Of a DNA stretch of 64,000 nucleotides, positions 3,330 through 52,086 are shown in pieces. The notes under the pieces were generated by a model. That model saw only the letters and a program-made list of their open reading frames with translations. It was not told the origin of the DNA and did not search any database. Within the stretch, counting starts at the first letter, position 1, and every line of letters begins with the position of its first letter. A program made the translations under genes and the position numbers. The DNA lies in the NCBI RefSeq assembly GCF_018332695.1, contig NZ_BOQN01000021.1, forward strand, positions 1 through 64,000. Reading direction: 5' to 3'. Source of the DNA: Paractinoplanes toevensis (GTDB lineage: Bacteria > Actinomycetota > Actinomycetes > Mycobacteriales > Micromonosporaceae).

Positions 3330-3415
3330 GTTTGTTTTCCGTATTCGTTTCACGGGGTCGCCGGTAACACGCGAGGTTCCGACCACGCGTACGTCAGGAA
3401 ACGGTGAGGACAGGC

Positions 3416-5286: not shown

Positions 5287-5412
5287 CTAACATCGCAATT
5301 AATCGATGTATTGGCTCAGGCCCGCTCCCGGCCTCACAACACGGGTAAAAGCGACATCTCGTGGGTGGCATCCCGGGGCCGCCCCGCCGTCGCCGCACCC
5401 CTGGAGACAGTG

Positions 5413-33210: not shown

Positions 33211-34230
33211 TCACCGGCGGCGCTGCGACGCACGTCGCAGCCGCCGGACATGCCACCGGTGGCGGACGGTTCCCCAGACTCCGCGGCGGAACAGCAGCAC
33301 CACGAGGATGAAGACCGAGCCGGTGATCAGGTCGATGCCGTGGAAGCCGGAGGAGGCGAGGTAATCGGCGAGCGTCACGTTCAGGAACGCGCCCACGACT
33401 CCGCCCCACAGCGTGCCGATGCCGCCGAGAACCGTCATCAGCACGACGTCGCCCGAGGTGGTCCAGTGCAGTTCGGTCAGTGCGACGAATCCGTGGCTGA
33501 TCGCGAACACCCCACCGGCCAGGCCGGTCAGCCCGGCGGAGAGCACGAAGGCGACGGCCTTGTATTTGTCGACGTCATAGCCGAGCGCCCGGGCGCGCGG
33601 TGTGTTGTCGCGGATCGACACCAGAACCCGCCCGAACGGCGAGTGCACGATCCGCCACGCCGCCCACATGCCGAACAGCAGGATCGGCAGGGCCGCGTAA
33701 TAGAAGTAGAACGACTCGGTCTCCACCGGTTCGAGGCCGAAGAACGACCGGGGTACGCCCTGCAGCCCGTTCTCGCCGCCGGTCAGGTCGCTCCACTGAT
33801 AGCCGATGAAGTAGACCATCTGCGCGAAGGCGAGGGTGACCATCGCGAAGTAGATCCCGGAGCGGCGCACCGACACGTACCCGATGGGAAGCGCGAGAAT
33901 CATCGCGAAGACCGCGCCGCCGGCGACGGCCACCGGGAACGGCACGCCGTAGTGCGTGGCGATCAGGCCGGTCACGTAGGCCGAACTCCCCCAGAACGCC
34001 GCGTGCCCGAAGGAGAGCAGGCCGGTGTAGCCGAGCAGGATGTCCACGGCGATGGCGAACAGTGCCAGCGCCACGATGTCCATCGCCACCGGCGGATAGA
34101 CGAACCAGGGCAGGGCGAGCGCCGCCACCAGGCCGGCGGCCAGCAGGATCCACCGCAGCCTCGGATTGTTCGCGGCCACCGGGATGTCGGCCCCGGCCGG
34201 CGGGGCCTCGGTGATCACGGACTGAGTCAT
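33211..34230 (-). CDS. LIV-type ABC importer permease (LivM family)
   Basis: The 339-residue membrane protein has about nine helices and the LivM signature GYTGLLSFGHAAFWGSSAYV, plus RGVWGT in the basic cytosolic tail. It pairs with the LivH-type permease (4-bp ATGA overlap, 34227-34230). The family imports branched-chain amino acids, but related systems move amides, urea and aromatic acids. The context here (tannase-family esterase, CoA ligase nearby) favours an aromatic or other organic acid. Confidence 0.92.
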   Translation of the reverse strand: MTQSVITEAPPAGADIPVAANNPRLRWILLAAGLVAALALPWFVYPPVAMDIVALALFAIAVDILLGYTGLLSFGHAAFWGSSAYVTGLIATHYGVPFPVAVAGGAVFAMILALPIGYVSVRRSGIYFAMVTLAFAQMVYFIGYQWSDLTGGENGLQGVPRSFFGLEPVETESFYFYYAALPILLFGMWAAWRIVHSPFGRVLVSIRDNTPRARALGYDVDKYKAVAFVLSAGLTGLAGGVFAISHGFVALTELHWTTSGDVVLMTVLGGIGTLWGGVVGAFLNVTLADYLASSGFHGIDLITGSVFILVVLLFRRGVWGTVRHRWHVRRLRRASQRRR

Positions 34231-35099
34231 GCCGTCGCCTCCTGACGTCCGAACAGCCCGGCCGGCCTGATCAGAATGACCAGGGCCATCAGGACGAAGA
34301 TGAGGATCTGCGCGAACGTCGGGGCGTACGCCTGGCCGAAGGCCTCGACCAGACCGACCAGGAAGCCCGCGACCACCGCGCCGACGATCGACCCGAGGCC
34401 GCCGATGACCACGACCGCGAACAGAATGATCGCGAAGTTGTTGCCCATCTCGGCGGTGATCGCCCGGAACGGCGCGGCGAGCACACCGGCGAGGCCGGCG
34501 AGCGCGACGCCGAAGCCGAAGACCGGCGTCACCCAGCGTCCCACGTTGATGCCCAGGGCTCGGGCGAGCTCAGGTTTCTCCGTCGCCGCCCGGACGATCA
34601 TGCCGATCCGGGTGCGCGTCATCACCAGCCAGACGAGCACGCACACCGCGACCGAGAACAGCAGGACGAACAGCTGGTAGCGCGGCAGCACCACGCCGGC
34701 CAGGTCGACCCGTCCCCGCAGGCCGCCGGGCAGTCGGTACGGCAGTCCGGAGACGCCGTACCGCTGCTTGACCAGCTCGACCAGGACCAGGGTGAGGCCG
34801 AAGGTGAGCAGAAGGTTGTAGAGCGGATCAAGGCGGAGCAGCCACTGGACGAGCAGCCGCTCCACCACGACGCCGAAACCGAACATCAGCACCGGCACCA
34901 CCAGCAGCGACCACCACAGCGGGAGATCGAGGGTGTCGAGCAGGACCGCAGTGGCGACCGCGCCGAGCATGTAGAACGCGCCGTGGGCGAAATTGACCAC
35001 GCCCAGGACCCCGAAGATGACCGCCAGCCCCAGCGCCGCCAGCGCGTAGAAGCTGCCGGCCGCCAATCCCTGGACGGCGTACTGGAGGACCGCGCTCAT
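34227..35099 (-). CDS. LIV-type ABC importer permease (LivH family)
   Basis: The 290-residue protein has eight helices and the LivH signature FYALAALGLAVIFGVLGVVNFAHG at its N-terminus (quoted in part: LGVVNFAHGAFYMLG). The start overlaps the substrate-binding gene by ATGA. It forms the transmembrane heterodimer with the 33211 product. Confidence 0.93.
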   Translation of the reverse strand: MSAVLQYAVQGLAAGSFYALAALGLAVIFGVLGVVNFAHGAFYMLGAVATAVLLDTLDLPLWWSLLVVPVLMFGFGVVVERLLVQWLLRLDPLYNLLLTFGLTLVLVELVKQRYGVSGLPYRLPGGLRGRVDLAGVVLPRYQLFVLLFSVAVCVLVWLVMTRTRIGMIVRAATEKPELARALGINVGRWVTPVFGFGVALAGLAGVLAAPFRAITAEMGNNFAIILFAVVVIGGLGSIVGAVVAGFLVGLVEAFGQAYAPTFAQILIFVLMALVILIRPAGLFGRQEATA

Positions 35100-36346
35100 G
35101 GCTTCATCGAGCAGCCGGACGCCTCGGCCGGTGGGAACCCTTCGGCCGCCGGGATCTTGGCCACGATCTCCTCGTAGTCCCAGTCCTCCTTCACGTCGGC
35201 CGGCTTCTTGACCCGGGCGAGGTTGGCGTCGTGGACGACCGAGTGGTCCTGGGCGCGAATCTCGCCGTTGCGCAGGAACACGTCGTTGACCTTCTTGCCC
35301 TCGAGTTTCGCGACCACCGCGTCGGCGTCGTCGGTGCCGGCCGCCTGAACCGCGTCCAGATATTGCAGCGCGGCGGAGTAGTTGCCGGCGTGCTCGAAAC
35401 TCGGGCGGGCCCCGGTCTCGGCCAGGAACCGGTCGGCCCAGGCGCGGGCCTCGGCGTCCATGTTCCAGTACCAGGGGTCGGTGAACAGCGTGCCGGCGAA
35501 CTGCTCCACGCCCAGCGAGTGGATGTCGTTGATGAGCATCAGCCCGACAGCCAGCTCGACGCCCTTCTCCTTCAGCCCCGACTCGTTGAACTGCTTGACC
35601 AGGTTGATCAGGTCACCGCCGGCCTGCATCGTGCCGATCACATCGGGATTGCTGCTGCCGGCCTTGGTGAGGAAGGTCGCGAAGTTCTCGTTCGGGAACG
35701 GCGTGGGGATGGTCTCCTGAACCGTGCCACCCGCCTTCGTGACCGCCGTGGTGAAGGACTTGGTCATGTTCTGCCCGAACTCGTAGTCGGGGAAGATGAT
35801 CGTCCATTTCTTGCCGCCGTTGCGGGTGACCGTTGCGCCGGTGCCGGTGGCGAGCAGGTGGGTGTTGTACGCCCACTGGAAGGTGTACTTGTTGCACTGG
35901 GCACCGGTCAGCGCGGTGGTCGCCGCGCTGACGTCGAGGAACAGCTTCTTGTGGTTCTTCGCCTGGGTGGCGACGGCCAGCGCGGCGGACGAGGTCGGCA
36001 CGTCCAGGATGACGTCCGCGCCGCCCCGCTCGTACAGCTCGGAGGCCTTGGTGTTGGCGATGTCCGGCTTGTTCTGGTGGTCGGTCGAGGTCACCTCGAT
36101 CTTCTTGACGACCGCCTGGTCGCCGTACTTCGTCCGGTAGTCGGCGACGGCCATCTCGACCGCCTTGACGGAGTTCGGCCCGGACGCGTCCTTGTAGATC
36201 CCGGACTGGTCGTTGAGGACCGCCAGCACCAGCTTGTCCCCCGAGAAGTCACCGCCCGAACTGGCGGGCCCGCCGCCACCGCAGGCGCTCAGCAGCAGTG
36301 TCACCGTGATGGCCGAGGCGCCGGCCCACTTTCGCTTGCTCTCCAT
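35096..36346 (-). CDS. LIV-type substrate-binding lipoprotein
   Basis: The 416-residue protein has a lipoprotein signal ending LLLSACGGGG (Cys ~22) and the type I periplasmic-binding fold of the LivK family (LVLAVLNDQSGIYKDASG, GGADVILDVPTSSAALAVATQ, FNESGLKEKGVELAVG). In the PF13458 family, members of this length with a NDQSG... start include aromatic-acid and amide binders. GGGAGAGAAC precedes the ATG. The residues contacting ligand cannot be assigned by eye. Confidence 0.9.
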   Translation of the reverse strand: MESKRKWAGASAITVTLLLSACGGGGPASSGGDFSGDKLVLAVLNDQSGIYKDASGPNSVKAVEMAVADYRTKYGDQAVVKKIEVTSTDHQNKPDIANTKASELYERGGADVILDVPTSSAALAVATQAKNHKKLFLDVSAATTALTGAQCNKYTFQWAYNTHLLATGTGATVTRNGGKKWTIIFPDYEFGQNMTKSFTTAVTKAGGTVQETIPTPFPNENFATFLTKAGSSNPDVIGTMQAGGDLINLVKQFNESGLKEKGVELAVGLMLINDIHSLGVEQFAGTLFTDPWYWNMDAEARAWADRFLAETGARPSFEHAGNYSAALQYLDAVQAAGTDDADAVVAKLEGKKVNDVFLRNGEIRAQDHSVVHDANLARVKKPADVKEDWDYEEIVAKIPAAEGFPPAEASGCSMKP

Positions 36347-36365
36347 GGTGTTCTCTCCCAGTCGG

Positions 36366-37058
36366 TCAGATGCCGAGGTGTTTGAGCAGGTCGCCCTCGC
36401 GGCGCCGGAACTCGTCGTTGTCGAGGGTCTCGACGATGCGGCCCTGGCTGAGCAGGTAGTGCCGGTCGGCCACGGTCGCCGCGAACTTGACGTTCTGCTC
36501 GATCAGCAGCACGCCGGCGCCGGTCGCCTTGACGTCGCGGATGATCGCCCCGATCCGGGCCACGATCACCGGGGCCAGGCCTTCGGAGGGCTCGTCCATG
36601 AGCAGCAGACGGGCGCCGGTGCGCAGCACCCGGGCGATGGCCAGCATCTGCTGCTCACCGCCGGAGAGCGTGGTGCCGGGCGCCTTGCGGCGCTCGGCGA
36701 GCACCGGGAAGGCCTGGTAGACCTGCTCCAGCGCCCAGGCCCGGTCGGAGACCGTGGGCGGCAGCAGCAGGTTCTCCTCCACCGTGAGGCTCGCGTAGAT
36801 GCCGCGGTCGTCCTGGACCCAGCCCATGCCGGCCCGGGCCCGGCGGTGCGCCGGCAGGCCGGTGATGTCGCGGCCGTGCAGGCGTACGGTGCCGCCGGCC
36901 TGCTGGTGCAGGCCGATCAGGCACCGCACCAGGGTGGTCTTGCCGGCGCCGTTGCGGCCGGCCAGCGAGACGACCTCGCCCGCGTTCACCCGGACGTCCA
37001 CTCCGTGCAGCGCCTGCGCCTGGCCGTACCACGCCGTCAGGCCGGTGACCTCAAGCAT
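36366..37058 (-). CDS. LIV-type ABC importer ATPase (LivF family)
   Basis: The 230-residue ATPase has Walker A GRNGAGKTT, the signature LSGGEQQMLAIARVL and Walker B LLMDEPSEGL. LivF proteins are typically ~235 residues. ATG 37058, behind GGTGAGG, overlaps the end of the LivG-type gene; an ATG at 37070 adds four residues. It energises the importer with the 37051 product. Confidence 0.93.
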   Translation of the reverse strand: MLEVTGLTAWYGQAQALHGVDVRVNAGEVVSLAGRNGAGKTTLVRCLIGLHQQAGGTVRLHGRDITGLPAHRRARAGMGWVQDDRGIYASLTVEENLLLPPTVSDRAWALEQVYQAFPVLAERRKAPGTTLSGGEQQMLAIARVLRTGARLLLMDEPSEGLAPVIVARIGAIIRDVKATGAGVLLIEQNVKFAATVADRHYLLSQGRIVETLDNDEFRRREGDLLKHLGI

Positions 37059-37815
37059 GGTCGGCCTCACCCAGGTACGCGGTGATCACCCGGTCGTCGT
37101 TGCGGACCTCGTCGTAGCCGCCCTCGGCCAGGATCCGGCCCTGCTGCAGCACCGTCACCCGGTCGGCCAGGCTGCCGACGACGTGCATGTTGTGGTCGAC
37201 GAACACCACGGTGCGACCGGCGGCGAGGCGGCGGACCAGCTCGATGGTGCGGTCGACGTCCTCGATCCCCATCCCGGCCGTCGGCTCGTCGAGGAGCATC
37301 ACCGGCGGGTCCAGGGCCAGCACCAGGGCCAGTTCCAGCGCGCGCTTCTGCCCGTACGCCAGAAGTCCGGCCGGCTTGTCGGCCAGTGGCATCAGTCCGA
37401 CCTGCGTGAGCAGGTCGTCCACCCGGGCGCGAGGCCGGCCGAGCAGTTTCTCCGACCGCCAGAACCGGAACCCCTGCCGGCTGTGGCCCTGCAGGGCCAG
37501 TTCGACGTGCTCGCGGCTCGTGAGGGTGTCGAAGAGGCTGGTGATCTGGAACGACCGGGCCACGCCCCGGCGTGCGACCCGCTCGGGCGGCAGACCGGTG
37601 ACGTCCTCGCCGAACACCGTGATCGTCCCGGAGGTGGGGGCCAGGAAGCCGGTCAGCAGGTTGAACAACGTGGTCTTGCCGGCACCGTTGGGACCGACCA
37701 GCGCGTGCACGCTGCCCTCGCGAACCTCCAGGTCGACCGCGTCGACCGCCCGGAAACCCCGGAAGACCTTGGTCAGAGCCCGGGTACGGATCGCCACCCG
37801 GCCGCCCGCCGTCAC
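37051..37815 (-). CDS. LIV-type ABC importer ATPase (LivG family)
   Basis: The 254-residue ATPase has Walker A GPNGAGKTT, the LivG-type signature (LLAYGQKRALELALVLAL) and Walker B VMLLDEPTAGM. GTG 37815 overlaps the stop of the upstream tannase-family gene as GTGA (37815-37812), which implies translational coupling of a secreted esterase with an importer. A more upstream GTG at 37833 is possible. The first ATP subunit pairs with the 36366 product. Confidence 0.92.
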   Translation of the reverse strand: MTAGGRVAIRTRALTKVFRGFRAVDAVDLEVREGSVHALVGPNGAGKTTLFNLLTGFLAPTSGTITVFGEDVTGLPPERVARRGVARSFQITSLFDTLTSREHVELALQGHSRQGFRFWRSEKLLGRPRARVDDLLTQVGLMPLADKPAGLLAYGQKRALELALVLALDPPVMLLDEPTAGMGIEDVDRTIELVRRLAAGRTVVFVDHNMHVVGSLADRVTVLQQGRILAEGGYDEVRNDDRVITAYLGEADHA

Positions 37816-39443
37816 GCGGTCCCCCGCGCACACACGAAGCTCTGGGCGCGGGCGGGATCACCGGAGCGGTATCTCGGCCAGCCCGGGTACTCGCAGAGCG
37901 GGCGGGTCCGGCCGTCCCTGGGGTCCTGCACCACGGGCCGGGCCGGCGGCTGCCCGTCCCGCACCCAGCGTTCCAGGGCGGAGAGCGAGTCCCAGGTGGC
38001 GGCGAACGCGGGCGCACCGAAGTTGGCGTGATTCGCGCCCGGCGCGACGTAGTACCGCAGGAACGCATCGGTCCGCCGGGGGCCGACCGTGGCCCGCACG
38101 CGCCGGTAGTAGTCGTTCGTGGACCGGTGCGAGACGAGCTCGTCGGCGGAGCCGTGCATCAGGATCAGTCGTCCGCCGGACCGCGCGAAGGGACGGAGGT
38201 CTGCGTCGTTGCGGTCCTGGATGGTGGAGAGGTAGCTGATCCGGGAGAGCCACTTCCCGGGTCGCCGCGGGTCCACCGCCATCCAGTTGTGGGCGGGGTC
38301 CCGGGTCAGGAAGTACTTCACCCACTGATCCCAGTACTGGAATCCGTACCCGCTGGTGGTCGGCATGGGATCGGCGGGCGCGGTGGTGCCGAACCCGAGA
38401 TACGGCGTCCGCATGTCAGCGCCCGACAGGAACGGGAATCCCGGGTAGTACCGCTCACCGCTGGCGATGCGGTACGGCCACCGGAACGGTGTGGACGCCA
38501 CCGTCACGGAGGCGATCTGCGGGTCGGAGAGGCAGGTCGGCCCGGTGTCGGCGCCGGCCGGGCAGCGGAGCACCCGGGGGTCGAAGTGGCAGCCGCCGAC
38601 ATCCGAGATGATCCGGTCCTCGACGCCGTCGCGCCCGTCGCAGGCCGCCATGACGCTGTTGTAGAGCAGAGTCTGCTCAGCCGGCCCGGGGAACGCGCCG
38701 GGCCGGGACATCACCTGTGCCAGGTACCCCAGGTCCAGGGCTTCGGCCATGTTGTTCCAGGCGGGGTAGGCGGAGATGACGCCGTCGAACGCGTCCGGCC
38801 ACCGCTGCGCGACGACCAGAGCCTCGCGGCCGCCGGTCGAGCCGCCCGCGAAGTACGTCCGGCCGGGTCCGGTGCCGTAGCCACGGCGGACGAGGTACAG
38901 GGCGGCGTCGTGGGTCTTCCGGAGCGCATCGCCGGCGGCGAAGTTCCGCAGGGCCTCGTCGTTCTGGCCGAAGGACCCGTCCAGGGACCCGGCGGGCCCG
39001 GCCTGATGGCCGGAATCGCTGGCGTACGTCGCATATCCCCGAGCCAGCGGCGCCGGCGAGTCGGGACGGCCGAACGGCACGTTCTGGGTGATGTCGGGGA
39101 TCGTCCCGTTGTAGCCGCCGCCACCGAACATCATCGTGTCGCGGTTCCAGCCGGTGGGCATCCCGAGCTGCAGCCGGATGTCCGGGGCGGACGGGTCCTT
39201 CGGGAAGAGCGACGCGCGGACACTGCAGTACTCCACGGTCCGGCCGCTCACCACCTGCGTCAGCCGGGATGCCGACTCGACCCGGCCGCCCCGGGTCGGC
39301 AGGCTGATCGCCGAGGCCGGAATCGTCGTTCCGGCCAGCTCCGCGCATCTCGGGGCGGTGCTCACCGCGGCTGCGGCCGGACCAGGCCCGAAGACCACCC
39401 CCGCACTCACCAACGCGGTCGCGAACGCCAGTATTCGACCCAT
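37812..39443 (-). CDS. Secreted tannase/feruloyl esterase family protein, importer-linked
   Basis: The 543-residue protein has a Sec signal (MGRILAFATALVSAGVVFG...AAAA) and the tannase fold: Ser202 in FAGGSTGGRE, Asp in HGSADELVS and His in PGANHANFG. CDGRDGVEDRIISDVGGCHFDP matches the calcium lid segment. The Cys residues that flank the triad in typical family members are absent (GGSTGG instead of GCSxGG), so it belongs to a different subgroup from the 3416 enzyme. ATG 39443 follows CTGGAGG. Its GTGA overlap with the LIV-type importer suggests that it releases the imported acid. Confidence 0.88.
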   Translation of the reverse strand: MGRILAFATALVSAGVVFGPGPAAAAVSTAPRCAELAGTTIPASAISLPTRGGRVESASRLTQVVSGRTVEYCSVRASLFPKDPSAPDIRLQLGMPTGWNRDTMMFGGGGYNGTIPDITQNVPFGRPDSPAPLARGYATYASDSGHQAGPAGSLDGSFGQNDEALRNFAAGDALRKTHDAALYLVRRGYGTGPGRTYFAGGSTGGREALVVAQRWPDAFDGVISAYPAWNNMAEALDLGYLAQVMSRPGAFPGPAEQTLLYNSVMAACDGRDGVEDRIISDVGGCHFDPRVLRCPAGADTGPTCLSDPQIASVTVASTPFRWPYRIASGERYYPGFPFLSGADMRTPYLGFGTTAPADPMPTTSGYGFQYWDQWVKYFLTRDPAHNWMAVDPRRPGKWLSRISYLSTIQDRNDADLRPFARSGGRLILMHGSADELVSHRSTNDYYRRVRATVGPRRTDAFLRYYVAPGANHANFGAPAFAATWDSLSALERWVRDGQPPARPVVQDPRDGRTRPLCEYPGWPRYRSGDPARAQSFVCARGTA

Positions 39444-39601
39444 TTGCGAACCTCCAGACGAGCACGCTGTGCCACCAAGAGATTGATGAGCGGCACTGAG
39501 TGCCACCGACTGTGCCATGGGTCACAATGGACTCGCAAGGGAAACGCCAAGGAAATGTCCGCAATGGACAGACGATCTTGGCCAACCGCCGGGGACCTGG
39601 A

Positions 39602-40147
39602 CTAGCCGGCGGTGCGTGCGGCTCCGATCTGCACGTAACACATCAGCGCCGGCTGATCGGACCGGTTCTTCCACGCGTGCCGGGTGCCGAGCTGCACCAC
39701 GCACGTGCCGGGCGTCAGGGTCACCTCCGCCCCGTTGTCGAGCTCGAGGCACAGCTCGCCTTCCAGACAGATGGCGTAGTCGACGGTGTCCGTCGTGTGC
39801 ATGCCGTCCCCCTTTTCCTCGAACGGGTCGGTCAGCCCGGGCAGCTTCTCAGCGACCTCATCGGCGACGCGGACGGGGTCCGGCATCGGCTGCGGCTCGG
39901 ACGAGTGTGCCGCCCATCGGAGGAACAGGGCCCGGCTGCCGCCGAGGCCGGGAAAGTAGGGCCGCAGGACGGGCTCGGCGTCCCGCTCGCCGACCCTCGC
40001 CTCCCCGTCCGGGGTTCCCCAGAGGAGATAGAAGTCGGCTCCCGGCAGAGCCTGGACGTTCACCGGGTCCGGGTGGCGGTCCTCGACGAAGACCGCCTCG
40101 CCGGCGCGGTTGTGGCCCGTCACGATCAGGCGCGGTTCGATGGGCAT
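39602..40147 (-). CDS. Cupin-domain protein
   Basis: The 181-residue protein ends in a cupin barrel: HTTDTVDYAICLEGELCLELDNG and LTPGTCVVQLGTRHAWKNRSD carry the usual His/Glu metal-ligand positions. The N-terminal ~100 residues (VNVQALPGADFYLLWGTPDGE) form a second, less clear beta-rich part with a PGADF pattern. It may be a small dioxygenase, isomerase or decarboxylase acting on an aromatic acid. It is 19 bp downstream of the CoA ligase gene in the same direction. Confidence 0.82.
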   Translation of the reverse strand: MPIEPRLIVTGHNRAGEAVFVEDRHPDPVNVQALPGADFYLLWGTPDGEARVGERDAEPVLRPYFPGLGGSRALFLRWAAHSSEPQPMPDPVRVADEVAEKLPGLTDPFEEKGDGMHTTDTVDYAICLEGELCLELDNGAEVTLTPGTCVVQLGTRHAWKNRSDQPALMCYVQIGAARTAG

Positions 40148-40166
40148 CGCGGATCCTTTCGATGGT

Positions 40167-41789: not shown

Positions 41790-42631
41790 CAGGAAAGCTC
41801 CCCGCCGGTCTCGACCGCCTCGATCCGCCCCGCCCGCCCGGTGGTCTCGGACGGTTGCCAGCTGTTCGAGGTGAGGAGGAAGAGCGTCGTCCCGTCCGGT
41901 CCGCCGAGCACGCAGTCGGTGGCGCACCGCCCCCCGACGTCGATCGTCCGGGTGACCCGGCCGCCCGCCTCGACCCGCAGGAACTGCGCGGTCGCGATGG
42001 AGGAGACCCAGATCGCCCCGGTCCGGTCCACGCAGATCCCGTCGGGTGTCGACCCGGGCGGCAGGTCGGCCCACGTGCGTTTGCCGGTCAGCTCGCCGTG
42101 CTCGCCGACGTCGAACGCGGTCAGCCGGGCCGCCCAGGTCTCGGCCACCACCAGGGTCGAGGTGCCCGGCAGAACGACCATGCCGTTCGGGAAGACCATG
42201 TCGTTCTCGACCCGGGTCACTCGGCCGCCGGCGTCGATCCGGAAGATCGGACCGGGTCGCTGCAGCGCGTCGCCGTAGAGGTCGTACCCGAAGCCGCCCA
42301 GAAAGGTGCGGCCCCGGTCGTCGGTGACCAGATCGTTGACGGGTGCGTCGGTGAGATCCGAGACGTCGGCGAAGACGCTGAGCTTCCCGTCCGGGTCCAG
42401 CCGGCGGACCTTGCGGTCGATCATGCAGCTCACCAGCAGGGAGCCGTCCGGTAACCAGCCGAGCCCGGAGGGCTGGTCCGCGACGACCGTCACCTCCTCG
42501 AGCGTCCGCGCGGCCGGGTCGGCCCGGAAGACCTGCCCGGTGTGCATGTCGGAGAACCAGAGGCGGCCGTCGTGCCAGCGGGCGCCCTCGGGGAACCGTA
42601 GGTCGGAGTAGAGCAGGGTGAGTTCGGACAT
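41789..42631 (-). CDS. SMP-30/gluconolactonase family lactonase
   Basis: The 280-residue protein is a six-bladed propeller of the SMP-30/LRE family. Metal ligands are Glu in FPEGARW, Asn in PVNDLVTD and Asp in STPDGICVD. Members hydrolyse sugar lactones or lactones of aromatic catabolism. It sits between a sugar-type importer and a CoA ligase in a co-directional operon. The start at 42631 has only a weak AGAG site. Confidence 0.92.
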   Translation of the reverse strand: MSELTLLYSDLRFPEGARWHDGRLWFSDMHTGQVFRADPAARTLEEVTVVADQPSGLGWLPDGSLLVSCMIDRKVRRLDPDGKLSVFADVSDLTDAPVNDLVTDDRGRTFLGGFGYDLYGDALQRPGPIFRIDAGGRVTRVENDMVFPNGMVVLPGTSTLVVAETWAARLTAFDVGEHGELTGKRTWADLPPGSTPDGICVDRTGAIWVSSIATAQFLRVEAGGRVTRTIDVGGRCATDCVLGGPDGTTLFLLTSNSWQPSETTGRAGRIEAVETGGELS

Positions 42632-42641
42632 CGGCGCTCTC

Positions 42642-43640
42642 TTAGATCGAGGTACGAGGGTGGTGGGACGGCCGCAGGCGGGTTCGTTGCCGGACGAGCG
42701 CGCTGTGCAGATCAGGGGCGTCGATGACGACGATGATCCCGAGCAGGCCCGCGAAGAAGAGCTGCGATACGTACTGCGGTACAGCGGCGACCGCCACGAT
42801 CTCGGCGAGCAACGCGACGGCCAGGATCCCGCCGAGCAGTCCCAGCGGGTGGCCCCGGCCACCGGCCAGGGAGACGCCGCCGAGCAGGGCCGCGGCGGCC
42901 GCCACGATCAGTGGCTGGACGCCGGGATCGGGGTTCGCCGATCCGAGGCTGAAGCTCAGCAGCGACCCGCCGAGCGCGGACAACACGCCGGAGGCCGCGA
43001 AGGTGCCCACGATCAGCCGGTCGACCCGGACCCCGGCGACGCGACCGGCCCGCCGGTCGCCGCCGATCGCGCGCAGTTCGCGGCCCCAGCGGCTCAGCGA
43101 CAGGACGGCCGCCGCGGCGGCGAACAGGCCCAGCGTGATCAGGCTCCGCGGCGAGAAGTACGTGAGGACGGGCTGGTCGACCCAGAGGGTCACCGTCACG
43201 TTGGCGTAGGTCTTGGTGAGTCCGCCGGACAGGGCGCTGGTGAGCCCCAGCAGCGCGATGTAGGTCGCCAGCGTCACCGGCATCGACGGGATCTTCAGGC
43301 GTGCGATCAACCCGCCCTGGAGCAGGCCGACGGCCGCGCCGGCACCCAGCGCCGCCAGCAGCCCCCACGCCCAGTGCTGCTGGCCCGCCTGCACGGTCAG
43401 CATCCCGCCGAGCGCGTACGTTCCGACCACCGACAGGTCGAACTCGCCGGCGATCATCGTCAGCCCCAGCGCGAGGGTGAGCAGGCCCAGCCGGGCGAAG
43501 ATCTGCAGTGTGTTGTAGACGTCGAACGAGCTGAGGGCCGTGTCGGTGTACGTCGGGATCAGCACGAACGCGATGATCGTGAGGACCAGCGCGGCCACCG
43601 GCAGCGAGGCCTCGGGCCGCCGGAAGGACGGTGGTTTCAT
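42642..43640 (-). CDS. Sugar-type ABC importer permease 2 (RbsC family)
   Basis: The 332-residue permease has about nine helices and typical RbsC segments (LTLALGLTMIAGEFDLSVVG, GRELRAIGGDRRAGRVAGV). ATG 43640 overlaps the first permease stop by ATGA. Together with the 43637 product it forms a heterodimeric channel, an arrangement seen in AI-2 and erythritol/rhamnose-type importers. Confidence 0.92.
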   Translation of the reverse strand: MKPPSFRRPEASLPVAALVLTIIAFVLIPTYTDTALSSFDVYNTLQIFARLGLLTLALGLTMIAGEFDLSVVGTYALGGMLTVQAGQQHWAWGLLAALGAGAAVGLLQGGLIARLKIPSMPVTLATYIALLGLTSALSGGLTKTYANVTVTLWVDQPVLTYFSPRSLITLGLFAAAAAVLSLSRWGRELRAIGGDRRAGRVAGVRVDRLIVGTFAASGVLSALGGSLLSFSLGSANPDPGVQPLIVAAAAALLGGVSLAGGRGHPLGLLGGILAVALLAEIVAVAAVPQYVSQLFFAGLLGIIVVIDAPDLHSALVRQRTRLRPSHHPRTSI

Positions 43641-44626
43641 GCGCGACTCCCTTCGGTACGCAGGTGCACGAGGACGACCACGACCAGGACGATGACTCCC
43701 TTGACCAGGATCTGGACGCCGGTCGAAGAGCCGCGCAGCAGCAGGATGTCGGACGCGGCGGCGATGAGGACCGCGCCCGCGAGCGTGCGCAGCGCGGAGC
43801 CACGCCCACCGGCGATCGGCGTACCGCCGGCCAGGACCGCCGCGATGGCGTCGAAGGTGAGCGTGCCGCCGAGGTTCACGTTCGCGGAGGTGTTGAAGGC
43901 GGCGGTGAACGCCGCGGTGACGGCGAACAACGCACCCGCGGCGAGCCAGGCCACCGCGGTCGTCCGGCCGACCGGCAGGCCGGCGGCCCGGGCGGCGCGG
44001 CGGTTCTCCCCGATGAGGTAGAGCGATCGCCCGAAGCCGGTCCGCCGCAGCGTCCACTGCACGATCAGGGCCAGCCCGATCAGGACGTAGACGCTGAGCG
44101 CCACGCCGCCGGGCGTCGCGTTCAGCCGGTCGTACCCGCCTCCGGTGGGCGAGACCGTCGAGCCGCCGCTGACGCCGGTCGCGATGCCGGTGATGGCGAA
44201 GCTGGCCGCGATGGTCAGCACCACCGGGTTCGCCGCGGCGTAGCCGACGATGGCGCCCTGGACGCCGGTGATCAGAATTCCGCACAGCACGGCGAGGGCC
44301 AGGGCCGGAACCAGGCCGAACGACTGCGCCGACAGGAAGATCATCCCGACGGCGGCCACGCTGGGCGAGATGGCCAGCGAGACCGCGGATCCGCCGATGG
44401 TGATCAGGGTCAGCCCGAGTGCCGCGATGCCGACCAGGCTGGCCGAGGTGAGGATGGCCTTGGCGTTGGCCACCGTCGCGAACCGGTGGGTGGTCAGGGC
44501 CAGCACGATCGCCGCCAGCACGGCGAGGAGAAGGACCGCGTCGATGACGAGCTCGGCCCGCGACCGGGACCGTCCGGGCCGGCGGATCGGCGCATCGGAA
44601 CGGGGCGGGGCGGACATGACGTTCAC
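43637..44626 (-). CDS. Sugar-type ABC importer permease 1 (RbsC family)
   Basis: The 329-residue permease has about nine helices, LVGIAALGLTLITIGGSAVSL near helix 3 and GRSLYLIGENRRAARAAGL in the EAA-like loop. GTG 44626 overlaps the ATPase stop as GTGA. It is the upstream partner of the second permease. Confidence 0.92.
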   Translation of the reverse strand: MNVMSAPPRSDAPIRRPGRSRSRAELVIDAVLLLAVLAAIVLALTTHRFATVANAKAILTSASLVGIAALGLTLITIGGSAVSLAISPSVAAVGMIFLSAQSFGLVPALALAVLCGILITGVQGAIVGYAAANPVVLTIAASFAITGIATGVSGGSTVSPTGGGYDRLNATPGGVALSVYVLIGLALIVQWTLRRTGFGRSLYLIGENRRAARAAGLPVGRTTAVAWLAAGALFAVTAAFTAAFNTSANVNLGGTLTFDAIAAVLAGGTPIAGGRGSALRTLAGAVLIAAASDILLLRGSSTGVQILVKGVIVLVVVVLVHLRTEGSRA

Positions 44627-46149
44627 CGTCGTTCCTCGGCCGGGGTCGCGGCGCCGTGCGTCATCTCCCGCAGCAGGACGGGGCCGGCCACGTCGCCGTC
44701 GTGCCGCCGCACGACCACGCCCTTGTGCATGGTGATCACGACGTCGGCGAGGTCGAGCAGCTCCTCCAGCTCGGTCGAGCTGAACAGCACGGTCATGCCC
44801 CGGTCGGCGGCGTCACGCAGCAGCACGTGGATCGCGGCGCGGCCGCCGACGTCGACGCCGCGGGTCGGGTCGTCGAGCAGCAGCACGCGGACGTCGGAGC
44901 GGCCGAGACCGCGCCCGACGAAGACCTTCTGCTGGTTGCCGCCGCTCAACGAACGCACGCTGTCGGCGGACCGCTTGCCGTCGAGACCGCACAGACCGAC
45001 GAGACGGGTCAGTGCGGTCGACCATCGTTGCCGGTCGATCACGCCCCACCGGGTCACCGCCGGCAAGCGGGTGGCGAGCAGGTTCCAGCTGATCGGTTTG
45101 TCGAGGAACAGCCCTTCGGACTTGCGGTCGTTGGAGACGAACGCGATGCCGGCCCGGGTCGCGGCGATCGGGTGGCCGGGACGAACCGTGACCCCGTCGA
45201 CCTCGATGTCGCCGGTCGCCGCCGGGACGAGGCCCGCGATCGCGCGCAGCACCTCGGAGGCTCCGGACCCGAGCTGGCCGGCCAGGGCGTACACCCGGCC
45301 CGGCCGGAGCCCGATGCTGAAGTCGTCGACCCGGCCGGCAACCGACAACCCGCTGACGTTCAGCACCTCGGCCGGCCCCTCGGCCTCCCGTCCGGTTCGC
45401 TTGCGGAGGCGGTGCGGCGCTTCGCCGAGCATCTGGACGATGAGGGAGTCGATGGTCAGGCCGGCCACCGCGGTGGTCGCCACCACCGCGCCGTCGCGCA
45501 TGACGGTGACCCGGTCGCAGAGACCGAGCACCTCGCCGAGCCGGTGCGAGACGAAGAGGATGGCGCGGCCGGTAGCGGCCACGGCGCGGACCGCCGCGTA
45601 GACGTACTCACTCTCGACGTCGCTGAGCGTGGCCGTCGGTTCGTCGAGGATGAGCAGCCGGGCGTCCTGGCCGAGCGCCCGGGCGATCTCGACGAGCTGG
45701 CGCTCGCCGATGCCGAGCTCGGACAGTGGCTGATCGAGGTCGACGTGGCCCAGCCCGACGTTGTCGAGCAGCGCGCGCAACCGGGGGCCGGCGGCACGCC
45801 GCCGGTTGAGCCAGCCCGCCCGGAGGTCTCCGAGCATGAGGTTCTCGGCGACGGTGAGCGACGCCACGACGCTCAGTTCCTGGTCGACCAGGGCGACTCC
45901 GCTGCGCTGCGCCACCTGCCGGCTGTGCAGGTCGAGCCGGTCGCCTCCGATCCGGATCGCCCCCGCGTCCGGCGTCTCCTGGCCGGACAGCATCTTGACG
46001 ACCGTGCTCTTGCCGGCGCCGTTGTGCCCGCACAGCGCGTGGATCTCGCCGGCGGCGATGCCGAACGACGCCCCGTGCACGGCCCGCGTGCTGCCGAAGC
46101 TCTTGGTGAGGTCGTCCACGCGGACCAGCTCCTCGCCGGTCGCACTCAT
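44623..46149 (-). CDS. Sugar-type ABC importer ATPase, two ABC domains (RbsA family)
   Basis: The 508-residue protein has two fused ABC domains. The first has Walker A GHNGAGKST and signature LGIGERQLVEIARAL; the second has the degenerate P-loop GQLGSGASEV typical of RbsA-type C-halves and signature LSGGNQQKVFVGRGL. ATG 46149 overlaps the binding-protein stop by ATGA. It drives import of a sugar, polyol or similar small molecule. Confidence 0.94.
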   Translation of the reverse strand: MSATGEELVRVDDLTKSFGSTRAVHGASFGIAAGEIHALCGHNGAGKSTVVKMLSGQETPDAGAIRIGGDRLDLHSRQVAQRSGVALVDQELSVVASLTVAENLMLGDLRAGWLNRRRAAGPRLRALLDNVGLGHVDLDQPLSELGIGERQLVEIARALGQDARLLILDEPTATLSDVESEYVYAAVRAVAATGRAILFVSHRLGEVLGLCDRVTVMRDGAVVATTAVAGLTIDSLIVQMLGEAPHRLRKRTGREAEGPAEVLNVSGLSVAGRVDDFSIGLRPGRVYALAGQLGSGASEVLRAIAGLVPAATGDIEVDGVTVRPGHPIAATRAGIAFVSNDRKSEGLFLDKPISWNLLATRLPAVTRWGVIDRQRWSTALTRLVGLCGLDGKRSADSVRSLSGGNQQKVFVGRGLGRSDVRVLLLDDPTRGVDVGGRAAIHVLLRDAADRGMTVLFSSTELEELLDLADVVITMHKGVVVRRHDGDVAGPVLLREMTHGAATPAEERR

Positions 46150-47180
46150 GCCTTGCTGCACTGTTCCGCGAACTGCGCGACGTTCTCGGCGGTCACCCGC
46201 TCCTCCTTGACGAGTTCCTTCGCGGGAGGGTTCTGCTGGTTGAAGTACCGGATCACGTAGTCGGCGGTCTGCTCGGCGATGGTGCCCGGGTCCTCGGTCG
46301 CGGTGCCGTAGAGCGTGCCGGCCTTGATCGCGTCGATGCCGACCTTGAAGCAGTTGCTGCCGGTGACGACGAGGCCGGTCTTGCCGCCCACCGGGCAGCC
46401 GGCCTGCTTGGCCGCCGCGACGATCGGAAGCGCCTGGTAGTCCGCCATGCCGTAGGCACCCTGGATGCCCGAGCAGCCGTACTTGGCGAAGAGCTGCGTG
46501 GCGATCTTGCCGGACAGCGTCGGGTCCCAGTTGCCGTCCTGGATGTCCACCACCTTGTATTCCGGCGTCTTCGCCAACTCGGCGTCGAAGCCCTTCATCC
46601 GGTCCTGGGCCGCGAAGCCGGACTTGGTGCCGGTGATCGCGATGAGGTTGCCGGAGTTCCGGCCCTGCGCTTTCAGACCCTCGACCAGGTTCTGCGCGGC
46701 GGCCGTGCCGAGCGCCTCGCTGTCCGAGAGGACCTGCATGACGTCCGCGTCGACCGAGGGGTCCGGACGCCCGTCGAAGACGAGCACCGGAATGCCGGCC
46801 TGCTTGGCCTTCTTGATCGGCACCACCGTCGACGACGTGTCGAGGAGAGCGGCGACGATCAGGTCGGGCTTGTTGGAGATGGCCTGGTTGAAGTTGGTCA
46901 CCGCGGTGCCGGGGTCCATCGTCGTGAGGTCGACGACCTTCACGCCCTGGGACTCGAGCTTGGGGACGAACACGCCGTTGAAATAGGCGCCCCAGGGGTT
47001 GTCCTTGCCGTAGCCGACGAAGTTGACGGTCTTGCCCTCGAGCCCCGCCGCTCCGGCGGTGTCGCCGCCGCCGGAGGAGCTGCCGCCGCCGCAGGCAGCG
47101 GTGACGAGCAGGACAACGGCCAGAGCCGCGGCGAGCTTCATCGAGGCCGGCAGGCGACGTATCAAATCTGAATGAATCAT
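46146..47180 (-). CDS. Sugar-type substrate-binding lipoprotein (RbsB family)
   Basis: The 344-residue protein has a lipobox LLVTAACGGG and a type I periplasmic-binding fold (VNFVGYGKDNPWGAYFNGV, FNQAISNKPDLIVAALLD, IPVLVFDGRPDP). It is the first gene of the long minus-strand run and is divergent from the GAF-PucR regulator. The ligand may be a sugar, polyol or quinate-like cyclitol; this is not resolvable by eye. GGGAGTCG precedes the ATG. Confidence 0.92.
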   Translation of the reverse strand: MIHSDLIRRLPASMKLAAALAVVLLVTAACGGGSSSGGGDTAGAAGLEGKTVNFVGYGKDNPWGAYFNGVFVPKLESQGVKVVDLTTMDPGTAVTNFNQAISNKPDLIVAALLDTSSTVVPIKKAKQAGIPVLVFDGRPDPSVDADVMQVLSDSEALGTAAAQNLVEGLKAQGRNSGNLIAITGTKSGFAAQDRMKGFDAELAKTPEYKVVDIQDGNWDPTLSGKIATQLFAKYGCSGIQGAYGMADYQALPIVAAAKQAGCPVGGKTGLVVTGSNCFKVGIDAIKAGTLYGTATEDPGTIAEQTADYVIRYFNQQNPPAKELVKEERVTAENVAQFAEQCSKA

Positions 47181-47335
47181 GAGCGACTCCCGATTCGCGC
47201 CTTACTTGTGAGGCCTGTCACACCTCCGTTCCGGGAACCTTAAGAGGGCGGCGACTCGCCAGTGAGGGAAGATCATCACACTGTTCGGAGCAAATCGGTG
47301 GGGTAGGCATCCACCCCAAGAGGGGAAGGCCGACG

Positions 47336-49075
47336 ATGAACGTCGATCTCACGTCCTACCGGATCCGCCGGGAGCGCGAGCTCAGCTCGTTGTATGCGAC
47401 CGCCCGGTCACTGACCGCCCTCGGGGAACTGGACGCCGTCCTGGACTCGATCGTTCACCAGGCCCACGAGCTGATCGGCACCGATTTCACGTACCTCTCG
47501 CTGCTCGGGACGGACGGCGAGCTGACGCTGAAGGCGTCGGAGGGCACCATCTCCTCGGCGTTCAACCATGCCCGCGTCCCGTCCGGAACCGGCGTCGGCG
47601 GTCTGGTCATCGCCACCGGCGCCCCGGCCTGGGTCAGCAACTACCTCGAGGCCGGCGACGTACCGCACGACCGGACGTTCGACGGCCTGGTCATTCCGGA
47701 AGGCATGGTCGCGCTGCTCGGCGTACCCCTGCTGGTCGGTGAGGAGGTGATCGGCGTCCTGTTCGCCGCCGACCGCACCGAACGGCCCTTCGAACCCGAC
47801 GAGGTCGCGCTCTTCAGCGCCTTCGCCGACCACGCGGCCATCGCCTTGAACAACGCCCGGCTGTACGACGAGAGCCGGGCGGCGTTTCGCACCATCGAGC
47901 GCCAGGTGGCGATGATGGAGCGAGCCCAGGCCGTTCACGAATCGCTCACCCGGGTGGTGCTGACCGGGGGCGGCGCCGACGACATCGCCCGGCTGCTGGT
48001 CGACCACCTGCGGGGTGCGGTCACGGTCTTCGACCGGGCCGGCGCCGTCACCGCCCGATGCTCGCTCGACCCGGAAACCGGGAACACCGCGCAGCGGCCG
48101 TCACCGGACGCGGTCGAGCAGGCCCGTCAGTCCGGCCGGTGGGCGACCACCACCGACAGCACCGGCCTCTGGCACAGCGCGGCGGCGATCCAGGCCGGCG
48201 ACACCCACCTCGGCGCGCTCCTGCTCACCCGGCGCCAGGAGCCCAGCCCGGTCGACACCCGCACCCTCGAGCGCGCGGCTCAGATCATGGGCCTGCTCAT
48301 CCTCAAGGAGACCGCCGTCGCGGAAGCCGAGGAACGGGTCAGCGGCGAGCTGCTGACCGAACTGCTCGTCTCCGCGCCACCGGTGACGCCCGCCCAGCGC
48401 GCCCGGGCGCACGCCCGCGGCATCGACCTCACCGCGCTGAACGTCATCGTCGTCGCGCAGTCCGAGACGAGGACCGTGCCGGAGGTCAGCCGTCGCCTCT
48501 ACGCCCTGTCCGCGGAATGGAAGGGGCTGGCCGGCGAACATCTCGGCCGCGCCGCACTGCTCGCCACGGCTTCGGATCCGGCCCGGCTCGCCGAAACGGT
48601 GCACGGTCGCCTTCGCCGGGAGCTCGGATCGCCGGTACGAGTCGTGGCCGAGGCGGTCACCGGCCACCATTGGGGACCGGCGTTCGACATCGCCGGCAAA
48701 TGCTGTGACCTCATGCGGATCCTGGGCGTGACCGACCAGGGGGCCACGACCGAGTCGTACGCGATGTTCGCCCTGCTGTTCGACACCGAGCGCGCGACGG
48801 ACCTGCACCGGTTCCTCGACAACGCGCTGGAACCGCTCCTGACCCACGACACCCGACGGTCGACGCAACTGGTGGCCACCCTGTCGGCCTACTTCGGCAA
48901 CGCCGGCAACGTCACCCGGACCGCCGCCTCGCTCCACGTGCACGTGAACACCCTGCTCAAGAGACTCGACCGGGTCGACAACATCCTCGGAAAGGGCTGG
49001 CGCGATCCCGATCGGGCCCTGCAGCTGCAGGTGGCACTCCGGCTCCACGATCTGCGCGCTCAACTGGGCCAGTAA
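47336..49075 (+). CDS. GAF-domain PucR-family transcriptional regulator
   Basis: The 579-residue protein has a GAF domain at ~25-180 (LDSIVHQAHELIGTDFTYLSLL, VIPEGMVALLGVPLLVGEEVIGVLFAADR), a central region and a C-terminal PucR helix-turn-helix (YFGNAGNVTRTAASLHVHVN, ~525-550). GAF-PucR proteins sense small aromatic or catabolic intermediates and activate divergent operons. The 155-bp spacer to the binding-protein gene is where it should act. A strong AAGAGGGGAAGG site precedes the ATG. Confidence 0.9.
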   Translation: MNVDLTSYRIRRERELSSLYATARSLTALGELDAVLDSIVHQAHELIGTDFTYLSLLGTDGELTLKASEGTISSAFNHARVPSGTGVGGLVIATGAPAWVSNYLEAGDVPHDRTFDGLVIPEGMVALLGVPLLVGEEVIGVLFAADRTERPFEPDEVALFSAFADHAAIALNNARLYDESRAAFRTIERQVAMMERAQAVHESLTRVVLTGGGADDIARLLVDHLRGAVTVFDRAGAVTARCSLDPETGNTAQRPSPDAVEQARQSGRWATTTDSTGLWHSAAAIQAGDTHLGALLLTRRQEPSPVDTRTLERAAQIMGLLILKETAVAEAEERVSGELLTELLVSAPPVTPAQRARAHARGIDLTALNVIVVAQSETRTVPEVSRRLYALSAEWKGLAGEHLGRAALLATASDPARLAETVHGRLRRELGSPVRVVAEAVTGHHWGPAFDIAGKCCDLMRILGVTDQGATTESYAMFALLFDTERATDLHRFLDNALEPLLTHDTRRSTQLVATLSAYFGNAGNVTRTAASLHVHVNTLLKRLDRVDNILGKGWRDPDRALQLQVALRLHDLRAQLGQ

Positions 49076-52066: not shown

Positions 52067-52086
52067 TCCCCCGTGAGGAGCGCCGC

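What the first reader, a model, noticed from the sequence alone, without database searches (positions are those of the whole stretch)
33211..49075. Possible dedicated system for extracellular ester cleavage and two-way uptake of the products
From 47180 down to 32473, about fourteen minus-strand genes are tightly packed, most with 1-4 bp overlaps: an RbsABC-type importer, SMP-30 lactonase, CoA ligase, cupin, secreted tannase-family esterase, a LIV-type importer and TetR, with a divergent GAF-PucR regulator. Seen directly: the gene order and overlaps. Known: LIV-type systems can carry aromatic acids (as in coumarate uptake in Rhodopseudomonas), SMP-30 enzymes open lactones, and GAF-PucR regulators sense catabolic intermediates. 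Inference: an ester of an acid with a sugar or cyclitol (for example a chlorogenate-like compound or a gallate ester) is split outside, each half enters by its own importer, and the acid becomes a CoA thioester. I do not recall this exact combination as a described system.
Basis: partly seen in the sequence, partly recalled or inferred. Interest (0 to 1): 0.72.

Follow-up and report, generated by a model that had tools for sequence, protein, structure and literature searches.

The report
Paired ester-catabolism operons with two importers
An actinobacterium carries two neighbouring, separately switched gene sets that together look like a kit for cutting ester compounds outside the cell, importing the acid pieces and burning them as fuel, built around a tannase-like enzyme that lacks that family's hallmark active-site bridge.

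Summary
The 14 minus-strand genes and the divergent GAF-PucR gene are real. They look like two transcription units, not one. Unit 1 (Rbs-type importer, SMP-30, CoA ligase, cupin) faces the PucR gene across a 155-bp gap holding GGTGG-N9-CCACC. Unit 2 (tannase-family esterase with a signal-peptide-like start, LIV importer, TetR) follows a 158-bp gap holding GGCACTCAGTGCC, a palindrome that tracks the TetR gene. Each gap holds a CRP-like site.

Units 1 and 2 belong together. Their genes co-occur across 300 family genomes, are adjacent in two arrangements in Micromonosporaceae and a third in Actinomadura, and one genome keeps a deletion scar. In 30 of 80 actinobacterial loci, PucR, ligase and esterase relatives sit together with an MFS symporter in place of LIV.

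The ligase is closest to fatty-acyl-type CoA ligases. Some relatives carry SDR, thiolase, 3-oxoacid CoA-transferase or 3-hydroxyacyl-CoA dehydrogenase genes nearby. This points to an ester-linked (3-)hydroxy acid rather than an aromatic acid plus a sugar, but it is inference.

The esterase clade lacks the tannase family's active-site disulfide in 80 of 80 loci, although fold and triad are kept. New variant of a known kind.

The parts
47336..49075 (+). GAF-PucR transcriptional regulator (divergent)
   Evidence: PF01590, PF13556; homologues at >=48% identity near the esterase in 46 of 80 loci; one paralogue at 42% in own genome
47181..47335 (.). divergent promoter region with GGTGG-N9-CCACC (47297-47315) and CRP-like TGTGA-N6-TCACA (47207-47222)
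46146..47180 (-). Rbs/CUT2-type substrate-binding lipoprotein (lipobox read by eye)
   Evidence: PF13407; orthologues in 16 of 300 genomes, own included
44623..46149 (-). RbsA/AraG-like double ATPase
   Evidence: PF00005, two stretches
43637..44626 (-). RbsC/AraH-like permease 1
   Evidence: PF02653
42642..43640 (-). RbsC/AraH-like permease 2
   Evidence: PF02653
41789..42631 (-). SMP-30/gluconolactonase-type hydrolase, no signal peptide seen by eye
   Evidence: PF08450, 154 bits
40167..41789 (-). AMP-forming acyl-CoA ligase (alternative start 41777)
   Evidence: PF00501/PF13193; best solved kin 6ihk 438 bits and 1ult 432 bits; no other match at E<=1e-60 in own genome
39602..40147 (-). small cupin protein
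   Evidence: PF07883; 3es1
39444..39601 (.). esterase promoter region with GGCACTCAGTGCC (39492-39504) and CRP-like site (39511-39526)
37812..39443 (-). tannase-family esterase with signal-peptide-like start, triad S202/D434/H472, no CS-D-HC disulfide
   Evidence: PF07519, 332 bits
37051..37815 (-). LivG-type ATPase
   Evidence: ORF and order; conserved in 16 of 16 orthologous loci
36366..37058 (-). LivF-type ATPase
   Evidence: ORF and order; 16 of 16
35096..36346 (-). LIV-type substrate-binding lipoprotein (lipobox read by eye)
   Evidence: PF13458, 281 bits; 3i09 300 bits
34227..35099 (-). LivH-type permease
   Evidence: ORF and order; 16 of 16
33211..34230 (-). LivM-type permease
   Evidence: ORF and order; 16 of 16
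32473..33153 (-). TetR-family regulator, likely reader of GGCACTCAGTGCC (inferred)
   Evidence: PF00440; palindrome tracks this gene

Best explanation
Two adjacent, separately regulated operons of one carbon-source pathway for ester-linked hydroxy acids. Unit 2 (TetR-controlled): an exported tannase-fold esterase splits an ester or oligo-ester outside the cell, and the LIV-type ABC importer takes up the freed acid. Unit 1 (PucR-controlled): a second, Rbs-type importer of unknown ligand brings in a related compound, which the SMP-30 hydrolase opens inside (lactone or ester). The CoA ligase activates the acids, and a dehydrogenase and thiolase encoded elsewhere finish them. The likeliest acid class is a 3-hydroxy acid such as 3-hydroxybutyrate. 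Shown here: genes, two promoter regions, conserved operator-like motifs, co-occurrence, fold and triad. Inferred: all ligands, export, the reaction order, the regulator-operator assignments and the chemistry.
For: Linkage: esterase-ligase 13 shared genomes of 17 and 23 carriers in 300 (p 1e-13; with five weaker ligase genomes kept, 28 carriers, p 4e-12); within the own genus, 67 genomes, 7 shared of 8 and 10 (p 1e-6) (hypergeometric, relatedness not corrected). Deletion scar in G246: a 120-bp PucR piece (90%) and a 69-bp piece of the ligase 3' end (86%) lie directly before the esterase, while a full PucR-Rbs-SMP30-ligase-cupin module sits elsewhere in that genome. In 80 loci exactly one of four importer types is found near the esterase in 67, and one of three CoA-activating types in 47. 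Hydroxy-acid chemistry: FabG-type SDR next to tetR in 9 of 16 loci, with a thiolase after it in 1; SCOT in 6 and a 3-hydroxyacyl-CoA dehydrogenase in 7 of 80 loci; SDR plus thiolase near the esterase in 2 of 12 annotated plasmid loci; a PHA-depolymerase-type esterase, and about 8 kb away a 3-hydroxybutyrate dehydrogenase, in 1 of 12. One crotonase query found 0 of 80 and one acyl-CoA dehydrogenase query 2 weak of 80. Ligase: 438 and 432 bits to acyl-CoA ligases 6ihk and 1ult, against 190 bits to a feruloyl-CoA synthetase.
Against: No ligand is shown for either binding protein. The PHA-depolymerase model NF050058 passes its cut-off in 272 of 300 family genomes, so that neighbour is weak evidence. 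33 of 80 loci show none of the three CoA activators and 13 of 80 none of the four importers within the stretch held. Among loci that have one, importer types change only 3 times and activator types twice on the esterase tree, so there are few independent events. One proteobacterial locus has an enoyl-CoA hydratase, one a 4-oxalomesaconate tautomerase, and 9 of 12 annotated plasmid loci show no 3-hydroxy-acid set. The window itself has no SDR or thiolase beside the operons. The ligase search and the crotonase search used one query each. The SMP-30 gene is missing between permease and ligase in G055, G075 and G130 (a 38-40% homologue lies beyond the cupin in the first two). The CRP-like site scores 9 of 10 in only 2 of 37 MFS-type promoters.
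Confidence: 0.42

Rival explanations
1. One reading: an ester of an aromatic acid (hydroxycinnamate or gallate) with a sugar or cyclitol is split outside; the acid enters by LIV and becomes a CoA thioester; the sugar part enters by Rbs and is handled through the SMP-30 lactonase.
For: The fold is nearest to MHETase and feruloyl esterases. A 37% homologue in Agrobacterium vaccinii lies in a run with 4-oxalomesaconate tautomerase and an ABC importer (that this enzyme belongs to gallate breakdown is recalled), and a 44% homologue in Variovorax follows an AMP-binding protein and an enoyl-CoA hydratase.
Against: The ligase is far from feruloyl-, coumarate- and benzoate-CoA ligases (190, 150 and 121 bits against 438). 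In 80 loci the one crotonase query found nothing. SCOT, SDR and thiolase neighbours fit 3-hydroxy acids better. None of 51 MFS-type loci has an Rbs module in the stretch held. The Rbs-type binding protein departs from ribose-binding proteins in the segments aligned to ND and GFDG (the role of those residues is recalled).
Confidence: 0.17
2. The PucR operon degrades a lactone that enters intact by the Rbs-type importer (a terpenoid, Baeyer-Villiger or signalling lactone); SMP-30 opens it and the ligase activates the hydroxy acid. The esterase-LIV operon handles a different ester of the same acid family.
For: Nine type-B modules (61-68% binding protein) hold Rbs importer, a 37-42% SMP-30 gene and a 60-66% ligase with no esterase beside them; 7 of the 9 also hold an SDR (3) or a thiolase (4). 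A luciferase-like oxidoreductase lies by the modules of G055, G075 and Actinomadura sp. NBRC 104412.
Against: No ligand evidence. SMP-30 genes at these sites differ strongly (about 40% identity between types) or are absent.
Confidence: 0.18
3. Two unrelated catabolic operons that happen to lie side by side.
For: Separate promoter regions and regulators; adjacent in only 4 of 17 Micromonosporaceae loci counting the window.
Against: Strong co-occurrence also within one genus; PucR, ligase and esterase relatives lie together with an MFS symporter in 30 of 80 loci; the Actinomadura locus and the G246 scar.
Confidence: 0.12

Closest known systems
Tannase / feruloyl esterase family (PF07519), including MHETase
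   Same: Fold with lid, Ser-Asp-His triad, signal-peptide-like start, eight conserved cysteines besides the active site (pairing not tested)
   Different: The active-site disulfide (CS-D-HC) is absent in the window protein, in 80 of 80 loci and in 12 of 12 plasmid homologues; identity to solved members about 21-25%
PETase/MHETase two-enzyme polyester systems (literature; PMC7568301, passages seen)
   Same: An MHETase-fold enzyme; in 4 of 80 loci (three Streptomyces, one Lentzea) a PETase-like protein with a signal-peptide-like start lies nearby (PF12740 shown for one of them)
   Different: No PETase-like gene in the window operons; CoA ligase and two ABC importers instead of terephthalate genes
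LIV (HAAT) aromatic- or hydroxy-acid ABC importers
   Same: Gene set GFKHM and a Peripla_BP_6 binding protein
   Different: Paired with a tannase-family esterase and a TetR; ligand unknown
CUT2 (Rbs/Ara) sugar importers with SMP-30 lactonase
   Same: Double ATPase, two permeases, Peripla_BP_4 protein, SMP-30 gene
   Different: Followed by a CoA ligase and a cupin; binding-protein segments differ from ribose-binding proteins

Membership tests
Tannase family PF07519 | Profile match over the curated cut-off along the whole enzyme | tested here: met
   332 bits against 29.8, residues 78-539
Tannase family PF07519 | Fold with lid domain | tested here: met
   AlphaFold model pLDDT 84; the top 28 Foldseek hits are MHETase, feruloyl esterases and tannase, TM 0.66-0.74 on the query
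Tannase family PF07519 | Ser-Asp-His triad | tested here: met
   S202, D434, H472 align with the MHETase triad and are present in 80 of 80 loci and 12 of 12 plasmid homologues
Tannase family PF07519 | CS-D-HC active-site disulfide, reported as completely conserved among biochemically distinct members (PMC7070470, passage seen) | tested here: not met
   By alignment: Gly before Ser in 80 of 80 loci; after His Ala 71, Val 8, gap 1; neither Cys in 12 of 12 plasmid homologues; the paralogue at 3404-5188 has both
3-(methylthio)propionyl-CoA ligase NF005426 | Score over the equivalog cut-off | tested here: not met
   544 against 822 bits
CUT2 sugar importer | SBP, double ATPase and permeases of the family | tested here: met
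CUT2 sugar importer | Binds a sugar | not testable with these tools
   No named subfamily cut-off reached; the model of this protein was poor, pLDDT 54
SMP-30/gluconolactonase PF08450 | Profile match | tested here: met
   154 bits
PHA/3-hydroxybutyrate utilisation system | Depolymerase or oligomer hydrolase, 3-hydroxybutyrate dehydrogenase, CoA activation, thiolase together | tested here: inconclusive
   Parts occur with relatives; I saw no locus with all of them, and the window operons lack the dehydrogenase and thiolase

The most novel reading that the evidence does not exclude
A disulfide-free clade of the tannase fold, found in Actinobacteria and Proteobacteria, serves as the oligomer hydrolase of natural hydroxy-acid polyester use. 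In this lineage it is coupled to a two-route scheme: cleave outside and import monomer (LIV), or import an intact ester or lactone and open it inside (Rbs plus SMP-30). Both routes meet at one CoA ligase and are gated by two regulators and a shared CRP-like site.
Probability: 0.17. Interest if true: 0.72.

Novelty: new variant of a known kind. Interest (0 to 1): 0.5.

Why it matters
It ties an orphan group of 'tannase/feruloyl esterase' annotations to a defined set of partners (importer, CoA activator, PucR or TetR regulator with operator-like motifs). [quoted passage not shown] If the substrate is a hydroxy-acid ester, a large group of actinobacterial enzymes would gain a testable role in natural polyester turnover.

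Tried and rejected
Rejected: one 14-gene operon (158-bp gap with conserved promoter elements). Rejected as proof: the PHA-depolymerase neighbour in Rhodococcus qingshengii, because NF050058 passes in 272 of 300 family genomes. Rejected: a PucR operator in the esterase promoter of LIV-type loci; best scores there are 6-8 of 10, as in shuffles. A phylum-wide search with the Rhodococcus esterase (396 genomes) gave only the window's genome and two genomes at 39-41%, so it added no neighbourhoods. The Rbs-type binding protein was modelled from 4 rows, pLDDT 54, and the model was not used. The own-genome SCOT homologue lies by a LysR-like gene and a thiolase-like gene and may be the beta-ketoadipate set (my reading of ORFs, not scanned), so it is not evidence. 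A first motif tally by text pattern picked wrong sites after the His in a few rows; the alignment tally replaces it. Literature: no paper describing this combination appeared in the listings; only open-licence PMC papers are held, the listings were capped, and passages were read in two papers.

The 80 are the best of 202 relatives found by peptide patterns. G078 (41%) was fetched (L052) but is not among the 16 orthologous loci and lacks the LIV set.
Full report
What is there. The window lies on contig C21 of a 10.9-Mb genome. Fourteen minus-strand genes run from 47180 to 32473: Rbs-type binding protein, double ATPase, two permeases, SMP-30 hydrolase, acyl-CoA ligase, cupin, tannase-family esterase with a signal-peptide-like start, LIV-type ATPases G and F, binding protein K, permeases H and M, and a TetR regulator. 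A GAF-PucR regulator is divergent at 47336-49075. Eight of 13 junctions overlap by 1-8 bp; the largest gap, 158 bp, separates cupin and esterase. Export and lipobox statements are read by eye; no signal predictor was run.

Two units, not one. In the 158-bp gap the minus strand carries GGCACTCAGTGCC at 39492-39504, the only GGCACTNAGTGCC in the whole genome (one copy is about what 12 fixed bases would give by chance, so uniqueness alone says little), and a CRP-like site at 39511-39526. In the 155-bp PucR-Rbs gap there is GGTGG-N9-CCACC at 47297-47315 and a perfect TGTGA-N6-TCACA at 47207-47222. These are the only two CRP-like sites with at most one mismatch in the 64-kb window; 0.79 are expected, and 16 of 100 shuffles have at least two, so the number is unremarkable and the placement is what counts. 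The name CRP is recalled.

The palindrome tracks the TetR gene. Among 80 loci it scores at least 11 of 12 upstream of the esterase in 17 of 18 that have the TetR orthologue, and in 0 of 62 that do not. Two of the 18 show no LIV genes: L120, whose contig ends after the esterase, scores 11, and L113 scores 10. In the Micromonosporaceae set it scores at least 11 in 17 of 17 with the window. CRP-like scores of at least 9 of 10 occur in 17 of 17 esterase promoters of that set and 10 of 10 PucR-Rbs gaps, but in only 2 of 37 PucR-MFS gaps.

The PucR motif is shared by two kinds of promoter. It scores at least 9 of 10 in 34 of 37 PucR-MFS-esterase gaps and in 10 of 10 PucR-Rbs gaps; letter shuffles reach that in about 1.2% and 0.6%. 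The ten gaps are eight distinct genomes (L037/L104 and L072/L118 are seen twice). The related sequences are not independent, so these are conservation statements, not probabilities. In the window as a whole the motif is not rare: 14 matches with at most one mismatch against 6.9 expected, two of them perfect.

Conservation of the two units. A search of 300 family genomes found 16 orthologous esterases (78-90%) besides the window's own; the next hit is at 41%. All 16 loci keep esterase-livGFKHM-tetR together. The Rbs-SMP30-ligase-cupin-PucR module adjoins in the window's arrangement in 1 of 16 (G170). In 2 more (G055, G075) it adjoins on the other side, beyond tetR. It lies elsewhere in others (G246, G024, G212, G130). 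In Actinomadura sp. NBRC 104412 the order Rbs-SMP30-ligase-cupin-esterase-LIV recurs at about 60-79% identity (SMP-30 42%), with tetR and two other genes inserted.

G246 carries a scar directly before its esterase: a 120-bp PucR piece and a 69-bp ligase-end piece, side by side, with a full module elsewhere in the genome. The simplest reading is former adjacency followed by deletion.

Co-occurrence. Esterase 17 and ligase 23 carriers (at least 56% identity) share 13 of 300. Five genomes with a ligase at 52-54% were dropped before this count; none has the esterase orthologue, and with them the figure is 13 shared of 17 and 28, p 4e-12. Esterase 17 and Rbs-binding-protein 16 carriers share 10 of 300. 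Within the own genus (67 genomes) 7 are shared of 8 and 10, and 7 of 8 and 8. The ligase has no other match at E<=1e-60 in the own genome.

Wider distribution. The best 80 of 202 relatives in named genomes are actinobacterial by their record titles, at 59-90% identity. With my thresholds, the importer within the held stretch is LIV in 16, an MHS-type symporter in 38, a second MHS-type in 7, an ACS-type symporter in 6 and none of these in 13, never two. The CoA activator is the ligase in 36, another AMP-ligase in 5, SCOT in 6 and none of these in 33. PucR homologues at >=48% lie in 46 and weaker ones in 7. MHS symporter, PucR and ligase stand together with the esterase in 30. On a quick tree of the esterase the four importer types need 3 changes and the three activator types 2, rows without one left out, so the replacements are few events.

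The esterase. It matches PF07519. Its AlphaFold model (pLDDT 84) hits MHETase, feruloyl esterases and tannase as the top 28 solved structures. The triad is S202, D434, H472. The cysteines next to Ser and His in MHETase are Gly201 and Ala473 here. By alignment, 80 of 80 loci have Gly before the Ser, and after the His Ala in 71, Val in 8 and a gap in 1; 12 of 12 plasmid homologues lack both cysteines. Eight other cysteines remain in the window protein; all eight are invariant in a 13-row alignment, and in a 27-row alignment seven are invariant and the eighth is at least 90% conserved. The paralogue at 3404-5188 has Cys at both places. Published passages describe the disulfide as completely conserved in biochemically distinct members (PMC7070470), and the ten MHETase cysteine positions as highly conserved in 6,671 sequences, with MHETase disulfide mutants in inclusion bodies or not expressed (PMC7568301).

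Substrate. The ligase is nearest to acyl-CoA ligases 6ihk (438 bits) and 1ult (432 bits), against 190 for a feruloyl-CoA synthetase; that 6ihk is a DmdB-type enzyme is recalled. Around relatives there is an FabG-type SDR next to tetR in 9 of 16 family loci (one of the other seven, G006, is cut by its contig end), followed by a thiolase in one, and SCOT with a 3-hydroxyacyl-CoA dehydrogenase in 6 of 80 loci.

Of 12 annotated plasmid neighbourhoods read, two have SDR plus thiolase (the first also an acyl-CoA synthetase and an MFS transporter). One has a PHA-depolymerase-type esterase next door and, about 8 kb away across transposase genes, 3-hydroxybutyrate dehydrogenase and an MFS transporter. 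One has an AMP-binding protein and an enoyl-CoA hydratase, and one a 4-oxalomesaconate tautomerase and an ABC importer. The other seven show no clear acid pathway; searches show ABC importers, an MFS transporter within 2 kb, and a 3-hydroxybutyryl-CoA dehydrogenase about 3 kb away. Four more plasmid stretches had no annotation.

The balance favours a 3-hydroxy acid over an aromatic acid for the near relatives, but the substrate is not shown.

The Rbs-SMP30 module. In nine 'type B' modules (binding protein 61-68%) the Rbs genes stand with a 37-42% SMP-30 gene and a 60-66% ligase, with no esterase beside them; an SDR was seen in 3 and a thiolase in 4 of the nine. This suggests that the Rbs-type importer feeds the same acid chemistry. 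The binding proteins have MADY and NCF where ribose-binding proteins have ND and FDG, so a plain sugar ligand is doubtful; which residues bind sugar is recalled.

Verdict.

Noticed in passing
window 3404-5188 (+) and 5311-6630 (+): A second tannase-family esterase (PF07519, 423 bits) with the normal CS and HC motif lies next to a pectate lyase gene; possibly a plant cell-wall feruloyl esterase.
   Followed up: partly
window 49275-50084 and 51715-53778 (+): A glucose/sorbosone-dehydrogenase-like gene and a ThuA / 3-keto-disaccharide hydrolase / ricin-lectin fusion lie just beyond the PucR gene.
   Followed up: no
L040 11156-11336 (G246): Pieces of the PucR gene and of the ligase gene end lie side by side directly upstream of the esterase, a deletion scar, while the full module is elsewhere in that genome.
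   Followed up: yes
L046, L048, L050 (G032, G120, G113): Upstream of the esterase, divergent: a carboxylesterase-like gene (my reading; weak LipP1 match) and a 59-61% ligase; in L046 and L048 also a second SMP-30 gene with a signal-peptide-like start.
   Followed up: partly
L174, L175, L177, L178, L180: A lipase-like gene (my reading) and a 3-hydroxyacyl-CoA dehydrogenase near the esterase, with 3-oxoacid CoA-transferase genes in 4 of these 5 and a PETase-like protein in 3 of these 5.
   Followed up: partly
G000:C85:47504-49231: A 42% PucR paralogue in the own genome lies by an alpha/beta-hydrolase-like gene (my reading of the ORFs).
   Followed up: no
L133, L135, L156, L159: The esterase match in these four of 80 loci contains one in-frame stop each, so these copies may be decayed or the records may hold errors.
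   Followed up: no
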